DNA of 64,000 nt, taken from NCBI RefSeq assembly GCF_000379445.1, contig NZ_KB902240.1, forward strand, positions 186,001 to 250,000. Direction: 5' to 3'. Below, one piece after another: positions 34,450 through 50,110 of the stretch. Source of the DNA: Fangia hongkongensis FSC776 = DSM 21703 (GTDB lineage Bacteria; Pseudomonadota; Gammaproteobacteria; Francisellales; Francisellaceae). How positions within the stretch are numbered: the first letter of the stretch is position 1; the number at the start of each line of letters is the position of its first letter. The translations under genes and the position numbers were made by a program. A model generated the notes under the pieces. That model made no database searches, was not told where the DNA came from, and worked only from the letters and a program-made list of their open reading frames with translations.

Positions 34450-34474
34450 TATACCAATCACAAACCAATTTACG
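34450..34474 (+). repeat. Dispersed TATACC repeat, diverged copy
   Basis: TATACCAATCACAAACCAAT followed by TTTACGG, a diverged version of the end of the 49944-50110 element. It lies in the tal / sugar-carrier divergent intergenic region. Confidence 0.45.
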
Positions 34475-34519
34475 GTATTTAAAGCTCGCTTATTATAACA
34501 AACCTATTGGAGCATTTTG

Positions 34520-36507: not shown

Positions 36508-37266
36508 ATGATGAAACGGAACGAACTACAAAACTACTTAACGGCCCTTTTAGACCCTGATGCAATAAAAGACTACTGTCCAAATGGGCTACAAATTGAA
36601 GGCAAAAATGATATTGAGCATATTGTCACAGGTGTCACTGCCAATCAGAAGTTGATTAATGCTGCAATCGAAAGAAAAGCCAATGCCATTTTAGTGCATC
36701 ATGGCTATTTCTGGAAGTCTGAACCCTACCCTATTGTTGGAATGAGATACCAGCGCATCTCTCGGCTAATAAAACATGATATCAATCTTTTTGCCTATCA
36801 TTTACCGCTCGATATTCACCCGACACTGGGAAATAATGTCATGCTTGCCAAGCTTCTGGGTTTAAAAGTGCTCTCAGAGTTCAATACCAATACTTCACCG
36901 AATTACGGTATACTTTGCCAGCCTCAATCATCTCTTAGTATTGATCAATTACAAGCGCACATTCAAAGCGCGCTTAAGCGCACCCCACTTGTGATTAACC
37001 CAACGAATAAACCTATTAGCAAAATTGCAATTTGCACAGGTGGCGCGCAGGATTTTATCGAACATGCCTATGAAGCGGGCGCTGAGGTATATATCTCAGG
37101 AGAAGCCTCAGAGCGCACCACACATTTTGCCGAAGAGCTTGGCATCAGCTATATCGCAGCAGGACACCATGCGAGCGAGCGCTACGGCATCCAAGCACTA
37201 GGCGAGCATTTAGCACAACACTTTAATCTACAGCATACTTTTATCGATATTGATAATCCTGTTTGA
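36508..37266 (+). CDS. Nif3-like dinuclear metal-centre protein (YbgI)
   Basis: 252-aa member of the Nif3/YbgI (GTP cyclohydrolase I type 2 homologue) family, which forms hexamers with two metals per subunit; the physiological role is unsettled. Putative ligands: HH in ILVHHGYFWK, the Asp/His in FAYHLPLDIHPTLGNN, and H-x-x-x-E in AAGHHASERYGIQALG. AGGA precedes the ATG. It stands alone just upstream of the cas locus and gives no sign of belonging to it. Confidence 0.88.
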   Translation: MMKRNELQNYLTALLDPDAIKDYCPNGLQIEGKNDIEHIVTGVTANQKLINAAIERKANAILVHHGYFWKSEPYPIVGMRYQRISRLIKHDINLFAYHLPLDIHPTLGNNVMLAKLLGLKVLSEFNTNTSPNYGILCQPQSSLSIDQLQAHIQSALKRTPLVINPTNKPISKIAICTGGAQDFIEHAYEAGAEVYISGEASERTTHFAEELGISYIAAGHHASERYGIQALGEHLAQHFNLQHTFIDIDNPV

Positions 37267-37401: not shown

Positions 37402-38361
37402 ATGGAAATACTCAATAATTTAAAAGCGATACTGCACTCCAAACGCGCTAATATTTATTATCTTGAAAAATGTAGAGTCATGCAAAAAGATGGACGAGTA
37501 TTATATTTAAGTGAGGACAAAGCCGAAAATAAATATTGGAATATTCCAATTGCCAATACCACAGTTATTTTACTCGGCACGGGAACTTCAATTACTCAAG
37601 CTGCCATGCGTATGCTTGCACAAGCAGGCGTACTGGTTGGTTTTTCAGGCGGTGGTGCAACTCCTCTTTTAATGTCAACTGAAATAGAATGGATGACACC
37701 TCAAAGTGAGTATCGCCCCACAGAGTATGTTCAAGGTTGGATGCGTTTTTGGTTTAATGAACATTGTCGTCTTGATGTTGCAAAACACTTTCAAAATTGT
37801 CGCTTAAAGTTTATTCAAAAAACATGGTCCAATAATCGAGACTTTTCAGCCTACGGGTTTGATGCTCAGAATCAAGCGCTTAATGAACTTATCATACAAA
37901 CCAAAAATAAAGTTGATCATGCTGAAAATGTCACTGAGCTTCTCACCATCGAAGCTTATCTTACCAAAAAACTGTATAAATTTGCTGCAAGTAACACAAA
38001 GTATGGTCAATTTTCTCGCCAACATGATGCTCAGGATCTTGCCAATACTTTCTTAAATCATGGTAATTATTTGGCATATGGTTTAGCAGCCTCCACATTA
38101 TGGGTGTTGGGCATTCCTCACGGCTTTGCAGTAATGCATGGGAAGACAAGGCGCGGCGCTCTTATTTTCGATGTTGCAGATCTTATCAAAGATGCTGTAA
38201 TTTTGCCGTTAGCTTTTATTTGTGCACATGAGAAAGCGACTGAACAAGAATTCAGACAACAGTGTCTACAGGCTTTTACTGATTATAAATGTCTTGATTT
38301 TATGTTTAATACTGTCAAGGATGTCGCGCTTAATACCGTCCATGAGGACCTACCATCATGA
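37402..38361 (+). CDS. cas1: Cas1, type I-F
   Basis: Metal-dependent integrase that, with Cas2, inserts new spacers at the leader end of the array. 319 aa. The N-terminal beta domain includes VILLGTGTSITQAAMRMLAQAGVLVGFSGGG (in part: LGTGTSITQAAMRMLA), typical of I-F Cas1. The helical catalytic domain contains the conserved Glu in LLTIEAYLTKKLYKFAA, the His in FAVMHGKTRRGALIFDVADLIKD, and the Asp in the same block. AAGGGCGGA precedes the ATG. It overlaps the cas2-3 start by 4 bp. Confidence 0.95.
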   Translation: MEILNNLKAILHSKRANIYYLEKCRVMQKDGRVLYLSEDKAENKYWNIPIANTTVILLGTGTSITQAAMRMLAQAGVLVGFSGGGATPLLMSTEIEWMTPQSEYRPTEYVQGWMRFWFNEHCRLDVAKHFQNCRLKFIQKTWSNNRDFSAYGFDAQNQALNELIIQTKNKVDHAENVTELLTIEAYLTKKLYKFAASNTKYGQFSRQHDAQDLANTFLNHGNYLAYGLAASTLWVLGIPHGFAVMHGKTRRGALIFDVADLIKDAVILPLAFICAHEKATEQEFRQQCLQAFTDYKCLDFMFNTVKDVALNTVHEDLPS

Positions 38362-41300
38362 TGGTTATTTTTGTGTCTGAGTGTGAGAAAAAAGCATTAA
38401 AACGCACAAGACGTGTACTTGATGCCTTTGCTAATCGCATTGGCAATAACACTTGGCAAACAGTGATTACACAAGAAGGCTTGCTTGCAGTTCAAACACT
38501 TCTTCGGAAAACAGCCAGTAAAAATACTGCCGTCAGCTGTCATTGGATACGTAGTCGCTCAAGAAGTCAGTTTTTATGGGTGGTTGGAAACAAATCAAAA
38601 TTTAATACTGAAGGGGTTGTTGCTGTTAATTCAACAAAAAAAAATCCATTTGATACTTATATTGAGAGTGACTGGCAATATTTACCCTTAATAAAAGCGC
38701 TCGTTGCGCTATCCGCTTTATTGCATGATTGGGGTAAAGCTTCTGAACTATTTCAAAAGAAGCTTGCACCAACAAGCAAAAACAAATATAAAGCCGACCC
38801 TTTAAGGCATGAGTGGGTTTCAATCCTATTACTTAAAGCCTTAATCGGAAATAATGACAATAGTGATAAAGCTTGGTTATCTTGCTTAAGTGATGGAGAT
38901 ATACCTGAAAACGAATTAAAAGAGAACATTATAAACGAGAAAAAGCCACTTTCTCAACTACCACCTGCAGCTAAACTTATTGCCTGGCTGATTGTCTCAC
39001 ATCATAGATTGCCTCAAACCAAAGAAGATTACCGTGGAGAGGCATCAGCAACTATTGATAGCCTTTTAAATCGCATTACAAAAGAATGGGGATATTGCAA
39101 TAACCAATATAAGCAAGAGGATAACAGGAATGAAAATGATTGTTTAAAATTTCCAGAAGGTCTTTTAACAAAATCACGTAAGTGGTTAAAGCAGCTTAAA
39201 CGCTGGGCAAAAAACTTGAGCGATATGTTACCCTTGATTGACTCTGCCATGCAAGATGGTAGTTATCGCGTTATCTTACACCATGCTCGCCTGTGTTTAA
39301 TGCTGGGAGATCACTATTACTCATCACAAGATGCTGCAAAAAATTGGCAAGGTGAAATAGAGTTATATGCAAATTCAGATAGAAAAACCAATGAGTATAA
39401 ACAAAGATTAGATGAACATTTGCTTGGTGTTGCTGAAAATGCCTTAAGAACAGCTCATCTTCTGCCTGCTTTCGAGCAAGAACCTCCTGTTGTTAAAAAT
39501 ACTCATGAGCTGAAAAAACCAAGTCCAAACGGCTATAAATGGCAAGATAAAGCAACGGAAGAAATTCATCAGTGGAAACAGCAGGTGGATATAAATAAAG
39601 TAGGTTTTTTTGCTGTTAATATGGCAAGTACTGGGTGTGGGAAAACCTTTGCAAATGCTAAAATCATGCATACATTGTCTCTTGACGGCGAGAGCTTACG
39701 CTATATTTTAGCATTAGGTTTACGAACATTGACTTTACAAACAGGTGATGAGTACCGCAAGCGTGTTAAACTAACTAAAAAAGAGCTTGCCGTGCTTATT
39801 GGTTCAAAAGCAATTGCTGAGCTGCATGCTAATAACTCATCATTTGATGAAGATAAATCCGAAGAAGAGCTGGGCTCAGAGTCCAAAGAAAGTTTATTAG
39901 ATGAATATGTGGACTATGAGTGTGATCTTCCAACTGATGGGCTAACGACCGTTTTAACAACAAATAAAGCGAAACAGTTTTTATATGCCCCTGTGTTAAC
40001 TTGCACTATAGACCATATTATAGCAGCAACCGAAACTAAGCGTGGTGGCCGTTATATATTACCTTCTTTGCGCTTGATGTCATCAGATTTAGTAATCGAT
40101 GAGATTGATGACTTTACAGGGTCTGACTTGGTTGCCATTGGTCGATTAATACATTTGGCAGGAATGTTGGGTCGCAAGGTAATGATTTCTTCTGCAACCA
40201 TCCCACCACACTTAGCTCAAGGATACTTTAACGCCTATCAAGAAGGTTGGCAGCTTTACTGTTTGACGCGTAGTAGCGCAAAACCTTTCATCGGTTGCGC
40301 TTGGATAGATGAGAATAATACAAAAATCTCTAGCTTAACTCATTCACAAAATAAAGGTTCTTTAATTGATTATTTAGATACGCATAATCAATTCATTAAG
40401 AAAAGAGTATTAAAGCTCAGTAAACAAATTGCGAGACGCAAGGCTGAAATTATTGCTTGCCCTCTAAATAATGCTGAGAATTTAAAAAACTCAATAGAAA
40501 ACAGAGAAACTAAAGAACGAGAATATTTTGCAAAGATAAAAGAAGCATTAATGCTTAAACATCAACAACATCATAGTATTGATCGAGTGACAAACAAAAA
40601 AGTTTCTTTTGGCGTGGTGCGTATGGCAAATATTACCCCTTGTGTTGCTTTGACTCGATATCTATTGCAAGAGCAGTACCCAAAAAATATACAAATAAAA
40701 GCTATGGCATATCATAGCCAACAGGCTTTATTATTGCGCCATGAGCAAGAGAAGCACTTGGATACTGTGTTAACAAGAAAAGAGCAATCAAATGAGCAGC
40801 CACAAGCATTTTCTAATGCGCTCATTCGTGAGCATCTTGATTCTTGTGTAGCTCAAAATGTTATATTTATTCTGGTTGCAACGCCTGTGGAGGAAGTTGG
40901 TCGTGATCATGATTTTGATTGGGCAATTGTTGAACCATCATCATATCGCTCAATTGTTCAGTTAGCTGGCCGTGTGCTAAGGCACCGACTTAAAGAAATT
41001 GATGCGCCCAACATTGGCATAATGCAGTATAATTTTAAGGCTTTTCAAGCAAATGATAAAACAGATTGTAAATACTTCATTCAACCCGGGTATGAGAATG
41101 GTATAAACAAAGCTTTATCAACCCATGATTTAGAAAGACTCGTAGATAAGCAGATGTTAATGCATAGTATTACGGCAATCCCTAGAATACAAATTCCCCC
41201 AGTTCCAAAAGAACAGCAACTTGCTGCACTAGAGCATTACGTGACTAAAAACATATTAGCCCAGTTTAACGCTAAAGGACCTAATACGCTTCAAGGTTAT

Positions 41301-41708
41301 TTAACAGAAACTTGGTATTTAACAGCTTTACCACAGGTTTTACAGCCATTTAGACTTAGCGAGAAAAGTCAAAACTTGTTTTTAGTTTATAACGAAAATC
41401 TATCTTGCTGTTATTTCACTGAGAAGGATAAATGGGGAGAGATATTAAGCGATATAAATAATAATCCAGTTAATCGGGAAAAAATCTTGGATATCTCTCA
41501 TGCTACACTTTCTGCTGAAGCGTTGCAAAATCTATGGTTAGTTCGTGATTATTCAAACTTGTTATCCCAATATATTGATGTCTCTGGAGCATCACTTGCA
41601 ACAAGAGCAGCAGTTTCGCTACGTTACGGTGAATTAAATATAGTTAAACGGGAAAACACAAAGTATGAATACAGTGACCAACTTGGATTAGTAGAAAAGA
41701 AAGCATGA
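38358..41708 (+). CDS. cas3: Cas2-Cas3 fusion, type I-F
   Basis: 1116-aa fusion specific to type I-F. Residues 1-95 form a Cas2 domain (MVIFVSECEKKALKRTRRVLDAFANRIG). An HD nuclease follows with H-D about residues 123-124 in SALLHDWGKASELF. The SF2 helicase has Walker A ASTGCGKTFANA (about 424-435), motif II DEID (about 581), motif III SSATIPP and motif VI QLAGRVLRH. A C-terminal accessory domain ends the protein. It is recruited by target-bound Csy complex to unwind and degrade DNA, and with Cas1 acquires spacers. No inactivating change is visible. Confidence 0.95.
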   Translation: MMVIFVSECEKKALKRTRRVLDAFANRIGNNTWQTVITQEGLLAVQTLLRKTASKNTAVSCHWIRSRSRSQFLWVVGNKSKFNTEGVVAVNSTKKNPFDTYIESDWQYLPLIKALVALSALLHDWGKASELFQKKLAPTSKNKYKADPLRHEWVSILLLKALIGNNDNSDKAWLSCLSDGDIPENELKENIINEKKPLSQLPPAAKLIAWLIVSHHRLPQTKEDYRGEASATIDSLLNRITKEWGYCNNQYKQEDNRNENDCLKFPEGLLTKSRKWLKQLKRWAKNLSDMLPLIDSAMQDGSYRVILHHARLCLMLGDHYYSSQDAAKNWQGEIELYANSDRKTNEYKQRLDEHLLGVAENALRTAHLLPAFEQEPPVVKNTHELKKPSPNGYKWQDKATEEIHQWKQQVDINKVGFFAVNMASTGCGKTFANAKIMHTLSLDGESLRYILALGLRTLTLQTGDEYRKRVKLTKKELAVLIGSKAIAELHANNSSFDEDKSEEELGSESKESLLDEYVDYECDLPTDGLTTVLTTNKAKQFLYAPVLTCTIDHIIAATETKRGGRYILPSLRLMSSDLVIDEIDDFTGSDLVAIGRLIHLAGMLGRKVMISSATIPPHLAQGYFNAYQEGWQLYCLTRSSAKPFIGCAWIDENNTKISSLTHSQNKGSLIDYLDTHNQFIKKRVLKLSKQIARRKAEIIACPLNNAENLKNSIENRETKEREYFAKIKEALMLKHQQHHSIDRVTNKKVSFGVVRMANITPCVALTRYLLQEQYPKNIQIKAMAYHSQQALLLRHEQEKHLDTVLTRKEQSNEQPQAFSNALIREHLDSCVAQNVIFILVATPVEEVGRDHDFDWAIVEPSSYRSIVQLAGRVLRHRLKEIDAPNIGIMQYNFKAFQANDKTDCKYFIQPGYENGINKALSTHDLERLVDKQMLMHSITAIPRIQIPPVPKEQQLAALEHYVTKNILAQFNAKGPNTLQGYLTETWYLTALPQVLQPFRLSEKSQNLFLVYNENLSCCYFTEKDKWGEILSDINNNPVNREKILDISHATLSAEALQNLWLVRDYSNLLSQYIDVSGASLATRAAVSLRYGELNIVKRENTKYEYSDQLGLVEKKA

Positions 41709-41718
41709 GCATAATGAG

Positions 41719-41793
41719 GAGGCAAGCTGCCTATACGGCAGTATTATCATTATATAAAATGACATTTTCTAAGCTGCTTGTTCAGCAGTTGAC
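41719..41793 (-). ncRNA. Degenerate mini-CRISPR encoding a putative crRNA-like regulator (CreR-like)
   Basis: Read on the minus strand: pseudo-repeat 1 (41793-41766) matches the array repeat at 23 of 28 positions. It keeps an exact CTTAGAAA handle and the Cas6f stem as CTGCT/AGCAG, a paired change from CTGCC/GGCAG. A 19-nt guide follows, ATGTCATTTTATATAATGA (41765-41747). Pseudo-repeat 2 (41746-41719) contains an uninterrupted 19-nt match, ACTGCCGTATAGGCAGCTT (41742-41724), which holds the whole hairpin. What has decayed is mainly the two ends of pseudo-repeat 2, outside the hairpin. A weak promoter (TTGTTA 41835-41830, TACATT 41810-41805, 19-bp gap) would start transcription just before pseudo-repeat 1. 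Processing by Cas6f would give a crRNA with a short guide. The guide matches the region upstream of csy1 (see 41901-41921). Structure is seen; expression and function are inferred from CreA/CreR-type crRNA-like regulators. Confidence 0.75.
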
Positions 41794-41816: not shown

Positions 41817-41864
41817 ATGAGAAGAAAAGTAACAAATACGATGAGACAAAAAACTATTAGATAA
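41817..41864 (+). other. 15-codon frame ATG-AGA-AGA between mini-CRISPR and csy1
   Basis: A short frame begins ATG AGA AGA AAA and ends TAA; all four of its Arg codons are AGA. CreT-type RNA toxins linked to mini-CRISPRs have tandem minor Arg codons after the start. However, AGA is not visibly rare in this AT-rich genome, there is only a weak A-rich ribosome site, and the guide target lies downstream of it rather than in front. Recorded as a position of interest, not as a gene. Confidence 0.15.
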
Positions 41865-41900
41865 ACCTGAAACTTGCTTGTTTATCACATAAGAAATTAT

Positions 41901-41921
41901 TTATTATTTAAAATGACATGG
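41901..41921 (-). promoter_or_regulatory. Putative target site of the crRNA-like guide, with CC PAM, upstream of csy1
   Basis: The minus strand reads CC followed by ATGTCATTTTAAATAATAA (41919-41901). It matches the mini-CRISPR guide at 17 of 19 positions, including an unbroken 11-nt seed. The mismatches are at guide positions 12 and 18, where type I crRNA bases are flipped out and do not pair. 5'-CC is the type I-F PAM. The site is 63-81 bp upstream of the csy1 ATG and overlaps or abuts the likely promoter. Confidence 0.75.
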
Positions 41922-41950
41922 ATTTCAAATAATTATATTTGATATATACT
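41913..41950 (+). promoter_or_regulatory. Putative csy1-csy4 operon promoter
   Basis: Two readings are possible. ATGACA (41913-41918, 5 of 6 to the -35 consensus) with TATATT (41934-41939) at a 15-bp gap would lie inside the guide target. TTTCAA (41923-41928) with TATACT (41945-41950) at a 16-bp gap would begin 2 bp beyond the PAM. Either way a complex bound at 41901-41921 would block RNA polymerase. Confidence 0.45.
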
Positions 41951-41981
41951 CCTTTGTAAGAAATAAAAAGGGCTTATTTTT

Positions 41982-43235
41982 ATGAATAAAATAATTACAG
42001 CATTTTTTACGGAAAAAAAAGAGGCGTGGTTAAAGAAAAACCTCAAAGCTTCTATGACTGACAATGAAATGGCAGTGCTCAAATCAGAATGTGAGCATAC
42101 TTTTTCATTAAATGTGTGGCTGCCTAGTGCAGCAAAAAGAGCGGGACAAATATCTATAGCAACACACCCATGTACTTTTAGTCACCCAAGTGCCAGAAAA
42201 AACAAAAATGGCTATGTCACTTCAATAATAGCAAATATAGAACAAGCAAATGATGGATTTTTGAAAACAGGTAATGTGTCTGTTATGAGTGATGCTTTGG
42301 GGAATGCTGCAGCATTAGATGTATATAAGTTTCTTTCGCTTGTTATGGAAGATGGGAGAAGCCTTCTGAGTCATATCCAACAAGACTCTAAACTTGCAAA
42401 GGAGTTGCTAAATCTCGATGCTGCAAATTATGAAGAACTGAAAAGTGGTTTCTTAACCATGATAGCAAGCTCGACAGAAAATATAACCAGTTCAAAAATA
42501 AAGCAAGTCTATTTCCCTGTTGGTGATGACTATCACCAACTATCTTTATTAACCAACTCAGGAATAGTATATGAGCTTAGAAATCGCCTTGATTCTTTGC
42601 GGTTTTCAGATAGTGTAAAAGAGCTGCGAGCTAAAAAGTATAATAATGAATATAGCGAACAAGGTTATAGCGAAATTTATAATTTAACAACAATAGGTTA
42701 TGGTGGAACTAAACCGCAAAACATAAGTGTGTTAAATAATCAACATGGTGGTAAGGCACACTTGTTATTATCTGTGCCCCCAAGCATAGAAAAACGTAAT
42801 ACTTATTTCCCAAAGCGTGACTTTTTTATTGAATCCATGCAAAAAGCTCACTATATCGGGACATTCAAAGCATTACATAAAATTTTTCAATTAGATTATA
42901 ACAATATCAAAATTCGAAATGCTCGAGACTATCATTTACAAGAGCTGATGAACATGATAGTTGAGAATATGTGGGCAGTGCGTTTAGTTTCAGTCGCTCA
43001 ATATCACGAAGAAACCTCAACCTTGGAAAAATGGCAACTTATTTGGTTACATGAGAACTTTGAAAAAGAACGAGAGGACTCAGAACAGTGGTTAGAACAG
43101 CTAGTTAAAAACATTTCTCATTGGATTTCTCAAACCTACGAAAAAATAATGGAAAAACAAGCAATAAAACTAGGTGAGGCTGAATATAAGCACATATCAA
43201 ATATTGTGGAACAAAATAAGGAGGCATTACGATGA
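41982..43235 (+). CDS. csy1: Csy1 (Cas8f), large subunit of the type I-F complex
   Basis: Subunit at the 5'-handle end of the Csy surveillance complex that, with Cas5f, recognises the CC PAM. 417 aa. Recognisable I-F blocks: the N-terminal LKKNLKASMTDNEMAVLKSECEHTF (in part), WLPSAAKRAGQISIATHPCTFSHPSARKN (in part: AAKRAGQISIATHPCTFSHP), and YGGTKPQNISVLNNQHGGKAHLLLS (in part: GGTKPQNISVLNNQ), which is diagnostic for Csy1. It is preceded by a 273-bp gap holding the mini-CRISPR and its target. It is the first gene of csy1-csy2-csy3-cas6f and overlaps csy2 by 4 bp. Confidence 0.93.
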   Translation: MNKIITAFFTEKKEAWLKKNLKASMTDNEMAVLKSECEHTFSLNVWLPSAAKRAGQISIATHPCTFSHPSARKNKNGYVTSIIANIEQANDGFLKTGNVSVMSDALGNAAALDVYKFLSLVMEDGRSLLSHIQQDSKLAKELLNLDAANYEELKSGFLTMIASSTENITSSKIKQVYFPVGDDYHQLSLLTNSGIVYELRNRLDSLRFSDSVKELRAKKYNNEYSEQGYSEIYNLTTIGYGGTKPQNISVLNNQHGGKAHLLLSVPPSIEKRNTYFPKRDFFIESMQKAHYIGTFKALHKIFQLDYNNIKIRNARDYHLQELMNMIVENMWAVRLVSVAQYHEETSTLEKWQLIWLHENFEKEREDSEQWLEQLVKNISHWISQTYEKIMEKQAIKLGEAEYKHISNIVEQNKEALR

Positions 43236-44158
43236 GCGAAATAAAAAAGTTACTGTTGTTGCCACATATCAACATCCAAAATGCTAATGCACTCTCTAGT
43301 CCTTTAACAATTGGTTTTCCTGCTATAACTGCCTGGCTCGGTGCAGTGCATGCCTTACAACGTAAACTTAATGCTTTAGGTTATGAAGACTTGAAGTTCA
43401 TTGCAACAGGTATAGTCAGCCATCGTTGTGATATACAAACATATAAAAATGAAGGTGATTATGTTCATTCTATTATTGGCACGGCTAATCCACTAGATAA
43501 ATCAGGTGCTCGTAGTGCATTTATTGAGGAAGCACGCTGTCACTTAGATGTATCTCTTTTAATTGAATATAATGGAATTACAAAAGATGATGAAAACGAA
43601 TTAATAGAAAAAATAAAACATATACTACATGCCAAGATGAAATTAGCAGGGGGCGATATTCTCTCTTTTAAGCCCCCTGCCTTTTTCAAAGTAGAAACAG
43701 GAAATGGTAAGGATATGCATACACTGAGGCGTAAACTTATGCCCGGCTATGCATTAATTGAGCGTCGTGATTTAATGGTCGCAGCAATGGAAAACGGTCA
43801 AGATGCCATTGACGGGTTGTTGGAGTATTTATGTATTCATCACACTTGTGAGTATGATGATAAGGATAAGGTTATCTGGTCAAGTGCGCGTAAAGCCAAA
43901 GGCTGGATTGTGCCTATTGCTATTGGTTTTCATGGCATTTCTGCGTTAGGCACAGCTAAAAATCAGCGAGATCCTGATACGCCACACAGGTTTGCTGAGA
44001 GTGTTGTGACATTAGGCGAATATAAAATGCCCCATCGAATAGAGTCAATAAATGAGATTATGTGGCACTACAAGACAACTGAACAAGACAACTTATATCT
44101 ATGTACTCAGTCCAAAAGCCAACCAGAATTAGATGAATTGTTTGATTTGTTTAATTAA
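43232..44158 (+). CDS. csy2: Csy2 (Cas5f)
   Basis: RAMP-fold subunit that pairs with Csy1 and caps the crRNA 5' handle. 308 aa. Characteristic blocks: LLLLPHINIQNANALSSPLTIGFPAITAWLGAVHALQR (seen in part as INIQNANALSSPLTIGFPA) and GYALIERRDLM. The C-terminal AIGFHGISALGTAKNQRDPDTPHRFAESVVTLGEY (in part: QRDPDTPHRFAESVV) is also typical. GGAG precedes the ATG inside the csy1 end, with a 4-bp overlap, so translation is coupled. Confidence 0.94.
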   Translation: MSEIKKLLLLPHINIQNANALSSPLTIGFPAITAWLGAVHALQRKLNALGYEDLKFIATGIVSHRCDIQTYKNEGDYVHSIIGTANPLDKSGARSAFIEEARCHLDVSLLIEYNGITKDDENELIEKIKHILHAKMKLAGGDILSFKPPAFFKVETGNGKDMHTLRRKLMPGYALIERRDLMVAAMENGQDAIDGLLEYLCIHHTCEYDDKDKVIWSSARKAKGWIVPIAIGFHGISALGTAKNQRDPDTPHRFAESVVTLGEYKMPHRIESINEIMWHYKTTEQDNLYLCTQSKSQPELDELFDLFN

Positions 44159-44185
44159 AGATAATTAATAAGAGGAAGCAAAAAT

Positions 44186-45217
44186 ATGGCAAAAAATAAT
44201 AATACTGTATCTGTTCTAGCGTTTGAGAAAAAATTAGTCCCATCCGATGGCTATATGTATGGTACTAATTGGCATGATAGATCAAAACAAGTGCCATTGA
44301 AGTTAACGGAAAAATCTGTGCGTGGAACCATCTCGAATCGTTTAAAACCCGCAATTAAAAATGACCCAGTTAAACTCAATGCAGAGGTAGAAAAGGCAAA
44401 CTTACAAACGGTCGATACCTGTGCGCTTTCTCCTGAACATGATACGTTGCAACTGCGTTTTACGTTAAAAATTCTTGGTGGGCTTCAGGAGCCATCAGCC
44501 TGTAATAATGTAGAGTTTAAGCAAAGCTATGCTAAAGCGGTGAGTGATTATATTGAAAGAGAGGCTTTTACTGAACTCGGTAAACGTTATGCACAAAACC
44601 TTGCCAATGCTCGTTTTTTGTGGAGAAACCGTGTTGGTGCTGAAAATATTGAGGTACAAATCCATATTTTAAATAACAATATTGATCAAAAATGGACGTT
44701 TGATGCAACCAAATTTAGTACACGTAACTTTGATTGTAATGATGACAATGTGATTGCTTTGGGTAAATACATAGCCAAGGCGTTGGCAAGTAAAGATGAT
44801 TTTCTAATGCTTAAGATAAATTGTTTTGTGAAAGTTGGCAGCGGGCAAGAGGTATATCCTAGTGAAGAATTAGTGTTAGATAAAGGAAACAGTAAAACTA
44901 AGAAAAGCAAGATACTATACTCAGTCAATGGAATTGCAGGCATGCATTCACAAAAAATAGGTAATGCACTAAGAAGTATTGATACATGGTACGCCGAGTT
45001 TCATGACCCTGAGAAGACGGCAGGTGTGATTGCTATCGAGCCTTATGGCGCAGTAACTAATTTGGGCAAAGCCTACCGAACACCTAAAGAAAAACAAGAC
45101 TTTTATACTTTTTTTGATCAATGGGCTAGAGGTACTAACCTTAAGCGCATTGAGGATGAGCACTATGTTATGGCTGTACTTGTTCGTGGCGGTGTTTTTG
45201 GTGAGAGCGATAAGTAA
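44186..45217 (+). CDS. csy3: Csy3 (Cas7f), backbone subunit
   Basis: Forms the helical backbone of the Csy complex along the crRNA spacer; each copy holds six nucleotides and flips one out, and copy number scales with spacer length. 343 aa. Family blocks: LAFEKKLVPSDGYMYGTNW, PLKLTEKSVRGTISNR, LSPEHDTLQLRFTLKILGG (in part), NARFLWRNRVGAENIEV, EPYGAVTNLGKAYR and the C-terminal VLVRGGVFGESDK. AGAGGAAG lies upstream of the ATG. This protein would also coat the 19-nt guide of the mini-CRISPR RNA, in a shorter complex. Confidence 0.95.
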   Translation: MAKNNNTVSVLAFEKKLVPSDGYMYGTNWHDRSKQVPLKLTEKSVRGTISNRLKPAIKNDPVKLNAEVEKANLQTVDTCALSPEHDTLQLRFTLKILGGLQEPSACNNVEFKQSYAKAVSDYIEREAFTELGKRYAQNLANARFLWRNRVGAENIEVQIHILNNNIDQKWTFDATKFSTRNFDCNDDNVIALGKYIAKALASKDDFLMLKINCFVKVGSGQEVYPSEELVLDKGNSKTKKSKILYSVNGIAGMHSQKIGNALRSIDTWYAEFHDPEKTAGVIAIEPYGAVTNLGKAYRTPKEKQDFYTFFDQWARGTNLKRIEDEHYVMAVLVRGGVFGESDK

Positions 45218-45225
45218 GGTAAGAT

Positions 45226-45819
45226 ATGAAATATTATATTGATATAACAATACTGCCAGATGCAGAGGCAAGTTTAGATTTTCTTTGGCGCAAAATATTT
45301 CAACAAATTCATTTAGCGCTGGTTGAAAATAAAAACAAGGATAACAGCTCATCCATTGCTATTAGCTTCCCACTCTACTGTAAGGCTACGTTTCCATTGG
45401 GAAATAAACTAAGGCTATTTGCACTATCAGAGAGCCCATTGAAAACAGCAAACATTGATTATTGGCTGAAGAGATTAAAAGACTACTGTCATATCACATC
45501 AGTTAAAGCTGTTCCTATTCAACATACATTTGCTTGCTTTAGTAGGAAACAGGTGAAATCCATAGAAAATAAAGCTAGACGACGAGCTAAAAAATTGAAC
45601 GTTGACTATAAAGAAGCTCTTAAGTTTTTTAAGCATAAAGAATCAGAATTATCATGTACACTCCCTTTCATTCAAGCAGTCAGCCAGTCTACATCTACCC
45701 CGCAAAAGCACCAAAACACTTTTCCTTTATTTATTGAAAAAAAAGAAAGTGATGTAGTAATAAATGGATCATATGATTGCTATGGTCTAAGCAAAACTGC
45801 AACGGTCCCAATATTTTAA
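45226..45819 (+). CDS. cas6f: Cas6f (Csy4) crRNA endoribonuclease
   Basis: Cuts pre-crRNA at the base of each repeat hairpin, leaving an 8-nt 5' handle, and stays bound to the 3' hairpin. 197 aa. The catalytic His is exactly at residue 29 (FQQIHLAL), as in the Pseudomonas enzyme. An Arg-rich helix, VKSIENKARRRAKKLNVD, reads the hairpin major groove, and LPFIQAVSQSTST supplies the Ser/Thr region. It ends 131 bp before the array. A weak stem-loop AACCTT/AAGGTT (45818-45838) overlaps its stop. Confidence 0.94.
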   Translation: MKYYIDITILPDAEASLDFLWRKIFQQIHLALVENKNKDNSSSIAISFPLYCKATFPLGNKLRLFALSESPLKTANIDYWLKRLKDYCHITSVKAVPIQHTFACFSRKQVKSIENKARRRAKKLNVDYKEALKFFKHKESELSCTLPFIQAVSQSTSTPQKHQNTFPLFIEKKESDVVINGSYDCYGLSKTATVPIF

Positions 45820-45944: not shown

Positions 45945-45950
45945 TTTACT

Positions 45951-47899
45951 GTTCACTGCCGCACAGGCAGCTTAGAAACTTCATACGTAAAATAATCTCT
46001 AAGATCATCTGTTCACTGCCGCACAGGCAGCTTAGAAAGTCAATGATACCCTTGCAGTAGGTTGTCAACAGTTCACTGCCGCACAGGCAGCTTAGAAAGT
46101 CTGAAAAAGGGAAGTTAGCTACAATTACGTGTTCACTGCCGCACAGGCAGCTTAGAAACTTAACAATTAAATCCATCAACGAGGCGTTGAGTTCACTGCC
46201 GCACAGGCAGCTTAGAAAGCATCACTTAAGATACACTTTAAAAAGCCCCCGTTCACTGCCGCACAGGCAGCTTAGAAACACCGAGGGCTGACTTTATCTA
46301 ATGGGAATTTGTTCACTGCCGCACAGGCAGCTTAGAAATTATTGTTAAAGGGCTCAGCCAGTATCTCTTAGTTCACTGCCGCACAGGCAGCTTAGAAATC
46401 ATGATCTTCTTATTAACGTTGATTATATTGGTTCACTGCCGCACAGGCAGCTTAGAAAAATCTGAGTAAGGAGATAGACATGAGATTCAAGTTCACTGCC
46501 GCACAGGCAGCTTAGAAACAAAGGACGGGGGATTGTCAGACGTGGTGGAAGTTCACTGCCGCACAGGCAGCTTAGAAATAGTCAAGAAGAAGCTATTGCG
46601 TAATTGATTAGTTCACTGCCGCACAGGCAGCTTAGAAAATTGTATGTAAAGTTATCTTTAATTAAATCGTGTTCACTGCCGCACAGGCAGCTTAGAAAAT
46701 ATACTTCTTTAGCTGCGTCAAGATATGATCGTTCACTGCCGCACAGGCAGCTTAGAAAAGATTCTTGGTTATACGGAACTATACTTATATGTTCACTGCC
46801 GCACAGGCAGCTTAGAAAATTATATACATAGATACCACTGTGTCAACAAAGTTCACTGCCGCACAGGCAGCTTAGAAATACCAGTTGAAGTATCTCCGGT
46901 ATGTCCTCCAGTTCACTGCCGCACAGGCAGCTTAGAAAAGCTTATTGCGCTTAGGCATAATGACGGTTTCGTTCACTGCCGCACAGGCAGCTTAGAAAAT
47001 ATCAGCAGCAATTAGCAGCTTAATAGCGTAGTTCACTGCCGCACAGGCAGCTTAGAAAACTCATTTTTATCTAGATCTGCTAAAGCTCTTGTTCACTGCC
47101 GCACAGGCAGCTTAGAAATCAATTAAAAAGTCAATATCCTGCTCACCATCGTTCACTGCCGCACAGGCAGCTTAGAAATCAAAGACATTAGTTGAAGCCC
47201 AGTTGCTACCGTTCACTGCCGCACAGGCAGCTTAGAAATCTATCTTTTCATGAGACTTCTTTGCGATTTTGTTCACTGCCGCACAGGCAGCTTAGAAATC
47301 ATCATAGGATCGAGTAACCGTTTGATTGGCTGTTCACTGCCGCACAGGCAGCTTAGAAATTCACCCACATCTTCTTTTTCGCCCACCCAGTGTTCACTGC
47401 CGTATAGGCAGCTTAGAAATTTAAAAGACATCAAGGCTCCGCAAGGATTGCGTTCACTGCCGTATAGGCAGCTTAGAAACAACTGACATAGCCCTCTACC
47501 TCTGGCGCAAAGTTCACTGCCGTATAGGCAGCTTAGAAATCTTCTTTGTACTTTTCGCTGTGTTTTCTCTAGTTCACTGCCGTATAGGCAGCTTAGAAAT
47601 CGCCATCATGATATTTGACGTTGAGTGATTCGTTCACTGCCGTATAGGCAGCTTAGAAAATGCCCTTTAAGCTTGTGGTCATATTAAGATAGTTCACTGC
47701 CGTATAGGCAGCTTAGAAATAAAGTAGGAAGGCCATCAGCAGCATTATAAAGTTCACTGCCGTATAGGCAGCTTAGAAATCGATAAAGAAATCAGGCGAG
47801 CTAAAAGTGCCGTTCACTGCCGTATAGGCAGCTTAGAAATGCAATTAATACAGGGGTATTGACTGGAAAGAGTTCACTGCCGCACAGACAGCTTAGAAA
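45951..47899 (+). CRISPR. Type I-F CRISPR array, 33 repeats and 32 spacers
   Basis: 28-bp repeats with stem CTGCC/GGCAG around a 5-nt loop and 3' handle CTTAGAAA. Spacers are 32 bp except the 23rd (47299-47331), which is 33 bp. Repeats 1-24 (45951-47359) have loop GCACA. Repeats 25-32 (47392-47839) have GTATA. The last (47872-47899) has GCACA plus a G-to-A change that breaks one stem pair. Repeat polarity, adjacency to cas6f, the leader promoter and terminal-repeat decay all give transcription on the plus strand. I did not recognise any spacer source; spacer 9 (46459-46490) contains an AGGAG-then-ATG arrangement, as at a phage gene start. Confidence 0.98.
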
Positions 47900-49943: not shown

Positions 49944-50110
49944 TATACCACTCACGAATCATTTTACGGTGTTTAATGTTGAAGAAGTTTTTGATAGTTT
50001 TGAGTCATTGGGTTGCAGGTAATAGCTTGGACTATTAGCAATATCTGATGACTTAAAAGAACAAGAAATTCAATGGCAGAAATAGGGTAAAGTGGTTTGC
50101 GGGTGGTATA
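49944..50110. mobile_element. MITE-like element with TATACCAC terminal inverted repeats
   Basis: A 167-bp intergenic unit beginning TATACCACTCACGAATCATT (49944) and ending, in inverted form, with TATACCACCCGCAAACCACT (50110 back to 50091). Over 24 bp the ends match at 19 positions and all five differences are transitions. The outer TA at both ends fits a TA target duplication, as made by IS630/mariner-type transposases; no transposase is present. Related copies: 58377-58442 (about 60 bp of left-end sequence), 28653-28676 and 34450-34474. Confidence 0.6.

What the first reader, a model, noticed from the sequence alone, without database searches (positions are those of the whole stretch)
41719..41793. 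Reverse-oriented mini-CRISPR between cas2-3 and csy1, a candidate crRNA-like autoregulator of the type I-F system
Seen: two repeat-like units on the minus strand (23/28 match; and an uninterrupted 19-nt match containing the whole hairpin) flank a 19-nt guide. Retained are the parts a crRNA needs: an exact 8-nt CTTAGAAA handle before the guide and an intact Cas6f hairpin after it. Known: CreA/CreR-type crRNA-like RNAs in other CRISPR types guide their own Cas complex to cas or toxin promoters. Inference: Cas6f and Csy1-3 would use this RNA to repress the csy operon. A 19-nt guide, against 32 in the array, should build a shortened Csy complex that binds but is poorly suited to recruit Cas2-3, which would explain survival of the host.
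Basis: partly seen in the sequence, partly recalled or inferred. Interest (0 to 1): 0.95.

Follow-up and report, generated by a model that had tools for sequence, protein, structure and literature searches.

The report
crRNA-like autorepressor of type I-F CRISPR
Between two genes of this bacterium's CRISPR immune system sits a tiny, backwards mini-CRISPR whose guide RNA matches the switch of the system's own effector genes, so the system very probably turns itself down; dozens of other bacteria carry the same device, and the kind is already known.

Summary
On the minus strand at 41793-41719, in the cas2-3/csy1 gap of a complete type I-F1 locus, two repeat-like units flank a 19-nt guide. The guide matches a site just before csy1 (minus strand, 41919 downward) with a CC PAM; up to position 19 the only mismatches are at 12 and 18. 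It is the only perfect site in the 2.95-Mb genome and abuts the -35 region of the predicted csy1 promoter.

I found the same device in the same gap of about 40 other I-F loci. In 40 of 41 automatically found cases the best site has a CC PAM. Pairing is conserved at 1-5, 7-11 and 13-17 and at chance at 6, 12, 18 and beyond, whatever the guide length (15-33 nt). Guides differ, so guide and promoter co-vary.

Best reading: a CreR-type crRNA-like autorepressor whose short R-loop blocks RNA polymerase but cannot trigger Cas2/3. There are no expression data. It is a new member of a known kind: Acinetobacter I-F creTA occupies the same gap with a 20-nt guide and CC PAM (PMC10097628), and CreR regulators are described for type I systems. 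The window has no room for a toxin mini-ORF after the target.

The parts
41766..41793 (-). Upstream pseudo-repeat (unit 1) with 8-nt crRNA 5' handle CTTAGAAA at 41773-41766
   Evidence: 23/28 to array repeat; Rfam CRISPR-DR4 E=2.9e-6; hairpin co-varies across relatives
41747..41765 (-). 19-nt guide ATGTCATTTTATATAATGA
   Evidence: Sequence; match to csy1 upstream site
41719..41746 (-). Downstream pseudo-repeat (unit 2) with intact Cas6f hairpin; predicted RNA 3' end at 41727
   Evidence: Exact 19-nt match to array repeat, unique outside the array; Rfam CRISPR-DR4 E=0.02
41903..41919 (-). Target protospacer ATGTCATTTTAAATAAT (positions 1-17)
   Evidence: Matches at 1-11 and 13-17, mismatch at 12; only perfect site in genome
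41920..41921 (-). CC PAM of the target (GG on + strand)
   Evidence: CC in 40 of 41 loci
41922..41950 (+). Predicted csy1 promoter: -35 ATTTCA 41922-41927, 17 bp, -10 TATACT 41945-41950
   Evidence: Weak consensus in the window (8/12) but at the offset where relatives have a clear promoter
38358..41708 (+). cas2-3 (Cas3f)
   Evidence: TIGR02562 E=1.9e-282
41982..43235 (+). csy1 (cas8f), the regulated gene proposed
   Evidence: TIGR02564 E=4.9e-54
43232..45819 (+). csy2, csy3, csy4 (cas6f): rest of the effector operon and the processing enzyme
   Evidence: TIGR02565, TIGR02566, TIGR02563
45947..47850 (+). Main CRISPR array, 28-nt repeats, 60-nt period (end approximate)
   Evidence: Direct repeats

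Best explanation
A CreR-type, crRNA-like autorepressor of the type I-F1 system. The minus-strand mini-array is transcribed (inferred) and cut twice by Cas6f (inferred from intact, co-varying hairpins) into a 47-nt RNA, 41773 to 41727, with the normal 8-nt and 20-nt handles around a 19-nt guide. By the published relation L = 6N-4 it should load a short Csy complex with about four Cas7f subunits (inferred). The complex binds the CC-flanked site just upstream of csy1 (sequence match shown), pairing through three Cas7f segments (positions 1-5, 7-11, 13-17), with its PAM end against the -35 region of the csy1 promoter (geometry shown, promoter predicted), and blocks RNA polymerase (inferred). An R-loop of about 17 bp is too short to trigger Cas2/3, so the chromosome is not cut (inferred from published I-F1 biochemistry). 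Csy expression would rise when array crRNAs or anti-CRISPR proteins draw effectors away from the regulator (inferred from published CreR work).
For: Own-gap site is the best by far and the only perfect one in the genome. 26 mini-arrays in a discovery set and 15 in a validation set: best site has CC PAM in 40 of 41; swapped guide-gap pairs reach CC with >=13 matches in 3 of 477. Pairing near complete at 1-5, 7-11, 13-17, at chance at 6, 12, 18 and from 19 on, in both sets. Three further mini-arrays found by eye also fit. Hairpin co-variation 20 double-changed cells, 0/500 shuffles as high. -35/-10 pair starts 0-2 nt from the PAM: mean 7.88 against 5.00 sd 0.20 in shuffles. In I-F1, short spacers or a 26-bp R-loop bind without Cas2/3 cleavage (PMC7296934). 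A 20-nt I-F CreA in the same gap represses transcription about 7-fold, needing Csy4 (PMC10097628) and pairs 2-5, 7-9, 13-17.
Against: No RNA, binding or expression data. The window's own -35 and the mini-array's promoter are weak by consensus, and no clear terminator follows unit 2 on its strand. The same-family genome G015 lacks the gap and mini-array, so presence is patchy. One locus, L145, has a mini-array without a matching site. In Acinetobacter the regulated product of the same gap is a toxin RNA.
Confidence: 0.9

Rival explanations
1. CreTA: the RNA is an antitoxin that guides Csy to repress a small toxic RNA (creT) in the gap, as in Acinetobacter WCHA45, rather than csy1 itself.
For: Same gap, same CC PAM and near-identical guide length in Acinetobacter, with a tested toxin (PMC10097628). 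Some related loci have mini-ORFs with Shine-Dalgarno between target and csy1.
Against: In the window the target starts 63 bp before csy1 and the predicted -10 ends at 41950, leaving about 30 bp; no mini-ORF with Shine-Dalgarno lies there, nor in the other loci of the 57-77-bp group. Mini-ORFs appear only in the far group (186-575 bp). An untranslated toxic RNA is not excluded.
Confidence: 0.06
2. A decaying remnant of an old array with no function.
For: Both units differ from the array repeat and presence across relatives is patchy.
Against: Guide-target complementarity with CC PAM in 40 of 41 loci with different guides, paired hairpin changes, and fixed -35 geometry are not expected of a remnant.
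Confidence: 0.02
3. A repeat decoy (Racr-like RNA anti-CRISPR) that sequesters Cas6f and Cas7f without DNA targeting.
For: Solitary I-F repeats can inhibit the system by binding Cas6f and Cas7f (PMC10651486).
Against: Two units with a guide whose DNA match and PAM are conserved; it lies inside the cas operon; no phage, plasmid or viral-contig match.
Confidence: 0.01

Closest known systems
CreR crRNA-like Cas regulators (Liu et al. 2023, Cell Host Microbe, known here only as cited and described in PMC12737573) and I-F1 regulatory mini-arrays (Shmakov et al. 2023, NAR gkad495; not held, contents recalled from memory)
   Same: Two repeat-like units around a guide with partial complementarity to a cas promoter, using the system's own effector; no toxin gene.
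   Different: Nothing essential. Particular to this locus: reversed in the cas2-3/csy1 gap, 19-nt guide, pairing in three Cas7f segments. Whether this genome is in the published lists could not be checked.
CreTA of Acinetobacter sp. WCHA45 type I-F (PMC10097628)
   Same: Same cas3-csy1 gap, divergent orientation, CC PAM, 20-nt guide unpaired at 6, 11 and 18, required pairs 2-5, 7-9, 13-17, crRNA-like handles.
   Different: WCHA45 has a toxic creT RNA with a 33-bp mini-ORF downstream of the target and a start site upstream of the target; the window has no such mini-ORF and a predicted promoter downstream of the target.
Racr solitary-repeat RNA anti-CRISPRs (PMC10651486)
   Same: I-F repeat mimic outside the array.
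   Different: Viral, single repeat, no guide; acts by sequestering Cas6f and Cas7f.
Delocalised crRNA of I-F3 CRISPR-associated transposons (PMC11656645)
   Same: Off-array guide with diverged repeats and a short target match.
   Different: Directs transposon homing; here cas1 and cas2-3 are present and the target lies upstream of the system's own csy1.

Membership tests
CreR (crRNA-like Cas autorepressor) | Repeat-like units able to give a crRNA (handle and processing hairpin) | tested here: met
   Exact handle, two hairpins, Rfam hits, co-variation
[quoted passage not shown]
   CC PAM, 15/15 non-6n positions, unique in genome, next to predicted -35
CreR (crRNA-like Cas autorepressor) | RNA is made, bound by the effector, and represses cas transcription | not testable with these tools
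   Needs RNA and reporter experiments
CreR (crRNA-like Cas autorepressor) | Not coupled to a toxin gene | tested here: met
   No mini-ORF with Shine-Dalgarno between target and csy1; an untranslated toxic RNA is not excluded
CreTA | Toxin gene creT downstream of the target, with a 33-bp mini-ORF and Shine-Dalgarno in the I-F case | tested here: not met
   None in the 62 bp between PAM and csy1
CreTA | crRNA-like antitoxin with CC PAM target in the same intergenic region | tested here: met
Racr | Solitary repeat on a mobile element, without guide | tested here: not met
   Two units plus guide inside the cas operon; no phage, plasmid or viral-contig match
I-F3 CAST delocalised crRNA | Transposon-borne system lacking Cas1 and Cas2-3 | tested here: not met
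   Cas1f and Cas3f present

The most novel reading that the evidence does not exclude
Type I-F mini-array regulators follow a fixed repression-only code found across classes: CC PAM with A or T as first base, exactly three Cas7f segments paired (17 nt) whatever the guide length, every sixth position and everything beyond 17 free, the PAM end placed 0-2 nt from the -35, guide lengths near 6N-4, and an unexplained preference for A at the unpaired target positions 6, 12 and 18. Such a code would let self-regulation be told from self-targeting by sequence alone.
Probability: 0.35. Interest if true: 0.6.

Novelty: new member of a known kind. Interest (0 to 1): 0.45.

Why it matters
It shows an immune system using its own machinery to limit its own expression, and gives a simple sequence rule for recognising such regulators in type I-F genomes. 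The rule separates repression (17-nt pairing) from cleavage (32-nt pairing), and the distance from target to csy1 (57-77 bp, or 186 bp and more) separates probable autorepressors from probable CRISPR-guarded toxin modules. If the model holds, anti-CRISPR proteins that disarm Csy would raise csy expression in such hosts.

Tried and rejected
The key paper (NAR gkad495) is not held and later searches found no text describing its I-F1 case, so its claims could not be checked. Phage, plasmid and viral-contig searches with the gap or guide gave nothing. A decoy and a remnant were rejected on guide-target conservation. Selection against pairing at every sixth position was tested and rejected: matches there are at chance, 26/78 against 31% expected. 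A + strand mini-ORF ATGAGACAAAAAACTATTAGATAA (about 41844-41867), with AGA codons, lies between mini-array and target; by eye it has no well-placed Shine-Dalgarno and sits on the wrong side of the target for a creT.

Full report
Check of the observation. The gap between cas2-3 (ends 41708) and csy1 (starts 41982) holds on the minus strand GTCAACTGCTGAACAAGCAGCTTAGAAA - ATGTCATTTTATATAATGA - TAATACTGCCGTATAGGCAGCTTGCCTC. The first unit matches the main array repeat at 23 of 28; the second shares an exact 19-nt stretch found nowhere else in the genome outside the array. Rfam's CRISPR-DR4 model hits both units on the same strand, E=2.9e-6 (34.8 bits, just under the gathering score of 35) and 0.02. 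The locus is a complete I-F1 system with a 60-nt-period array. The description in the finding is accurate.

Target. The guide's best site in the gap begins at 41919 on the minus strand, is preceded by CC, and matches at positions 1-11, 13-17 and 19; the only mismatches to that point are at 12 and 18. In 4000 shuffled gaps the best score never reached the observed 15 of 15 at the non-6n positions of 1-17. Genome-wide it is the only perfect site; the mini-array itself is spared because AA, not CC, precedes the guide.

Comparative test. A Csy1 profile scan of public genomes gave 80 loci. The cas3-csy1 gap is bimodal: mostly about 0-75 bp or about 200-400 bp, with a few longer. A mechanical search of the larger gaps, together with loci from a class survey, found 26 mini-arrays including the window's: 21 on the minus strand and five on the plus strand, the latter all from genomes titled as campylobacterial. 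Fifteen more, from the class survey and two further genome searches, served as a validation set after removing duplicates. In 40 of 41 the guide's best site in its own gap has a CC PAM; among 477 guide-gap pairs swapped between loci only 3 reached CC with 13 or more matches. Three mini-arrays missed by the script but seen by eye (L033, L065, L077) also fit. L145 is the one exception.

The pairing rule. Matches are nearly complete at positions 1-5, 7-11 and 13-17 and at chance at 6, 12, 18 and from 19 on, in both discovery and validation sets. This is the footprint expected of three Cas7f segments with every sixth base flipped out (established Csy structure, from general knowledge). It does not depend on guide length (15-33 nt). 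Guide lengths lie within one nucleotide of 6N-4 in 33 of 40, the published relation between spacer length and Cas7f number in I-F1 (PMC7296934). Lengths were measured by assuming 5 nt before the second hairpin, and relatives are not fully independent, so the p-value (2e-5) is indicative only.

Where it binds. In 32 loci with a minus-strand protospacer, a 17-bp-spaced -35/-10 pair begins 0-2 nt after the PAM complement: mean score 7.88 of 12 there, 5.00 (sd 0.20) in shuffles, and no comparable peak at other offsets. In the window the same geometry gives ATTTCA-17-TATACT, with a weak -35. The paired stretch lies upstream of the -35, and the PAM end of the complex would sit on the -35. This points to a block of RNA polymerase binding at csy1 (inferred). 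In the plus-strand group the site lies elsewhere in the promoter region, for example just after a -10 in L072.

Why it does not kill the cell. In a purified I-F1 system, complexes with spacers of 26, 20 or 14 nt, or with a 26-bp R-loop, form R-loops but do not trigger Cas2/3 (PMC7296934).

Toxin or not. In Acinetobacter WCHA45 the same gap holds a characterised CreTA with a 20-nt guide, CC PAM and required pairs at 2-5, 7-9 and 13-17 (PMC10097628). My survey shows two groups by distance from target to csy1. The window (63 bp) is in the close group (57-77 bp), none of whose minus-strand members has a mini-ORF with Shine-Dalgarno between site and csy1; several far-group loci (186 bp and more) do, including 33-nt ones. 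I therefore place the window with the autorepressors, not the toxin modules.

Pseudo-repeat constraint. Across 30 distinct upstream units the hairpin is paired in 99.3% of cells, with 20 double-changed cells (0 of 500 shuffles as high). The search pattern itself required at least four of five pairs and a handle-like sequence, so the percentage paired leans towards the structure; the number of double changes is the more telling measure.

Limits. No RNA, binding or expression data. The mini-array promoter in the window is weak by consensus, and no clear terminator was found on its strand. The same-family genome G015 has no gap and no mini-array, so presence is patchy. The most relevant paper (NAR gkad495) could not be read; I recall from its abstract that it tested an I-F1 mini-array, and CreR is reviewed in PMC12737573, so I rate this a new member of a known kind.

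Noticed in passing
40 surveyed loci; in the window minus-strand target positions 6, 12, 18 = 41914, 41908, 41902: The protospacer base at the unpaired positions 6, 12, 18 is A in 75, 60 and 60% of loci, against about 34% at other paired-region positions (thinned set, Fisher p=1.5e-7, not corrected for relatedness), while the guide base there is nearly uniform. Position 1 is only ever A or T. Unexplained.
   Followed up: partly
L161, L148, L154 (between target and csy1): Far-group loci carry short ORFs with Shine-Dalgarno, two of them 33 nt, starting GTG-N-TTGGCT, resembling the creT mini-ORF class described for Acinetobacter; candidate CreTA modules.
   Followed up: partly
L149 and L150 (67-aa ORF); L020 (74-aa ORF): Small protein genes lie between the target and csy1; the 67-aa protein has no Pfam match and the 74-aa one is DUF2188 (PF09954, E=2.1e-14). 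Possible CRISPR-repressed cargo.
   Followed up: partly
window 41932-41960, minus strand: The best minus-strand promoter-like site (CTTACA-17-TATAAT) overlaps the predicted csy1 promoter and would read through the target towards the mini-array; if real, the complex would also repress its own guide RNA.
   Followed up: no
window 45947-47850: The array has two repeat forms: CACA-loop repeats first, TATA-loop repeats from 47388 on. Unit 2 of the mini-array carries the TATA form exactly.
   Followed up: no
window 34451-34478, 36884-36911, 49945-49972: A 28-nt element with ATACC...GGTAT-like ends occurs three times, possibly a small palindromic repeat.
   Followed up: no
L145: A mini-array (26-nt guide) whose guide has no good CC-flanked match in its own gap; it may act elsewhere.
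   Followed up: no
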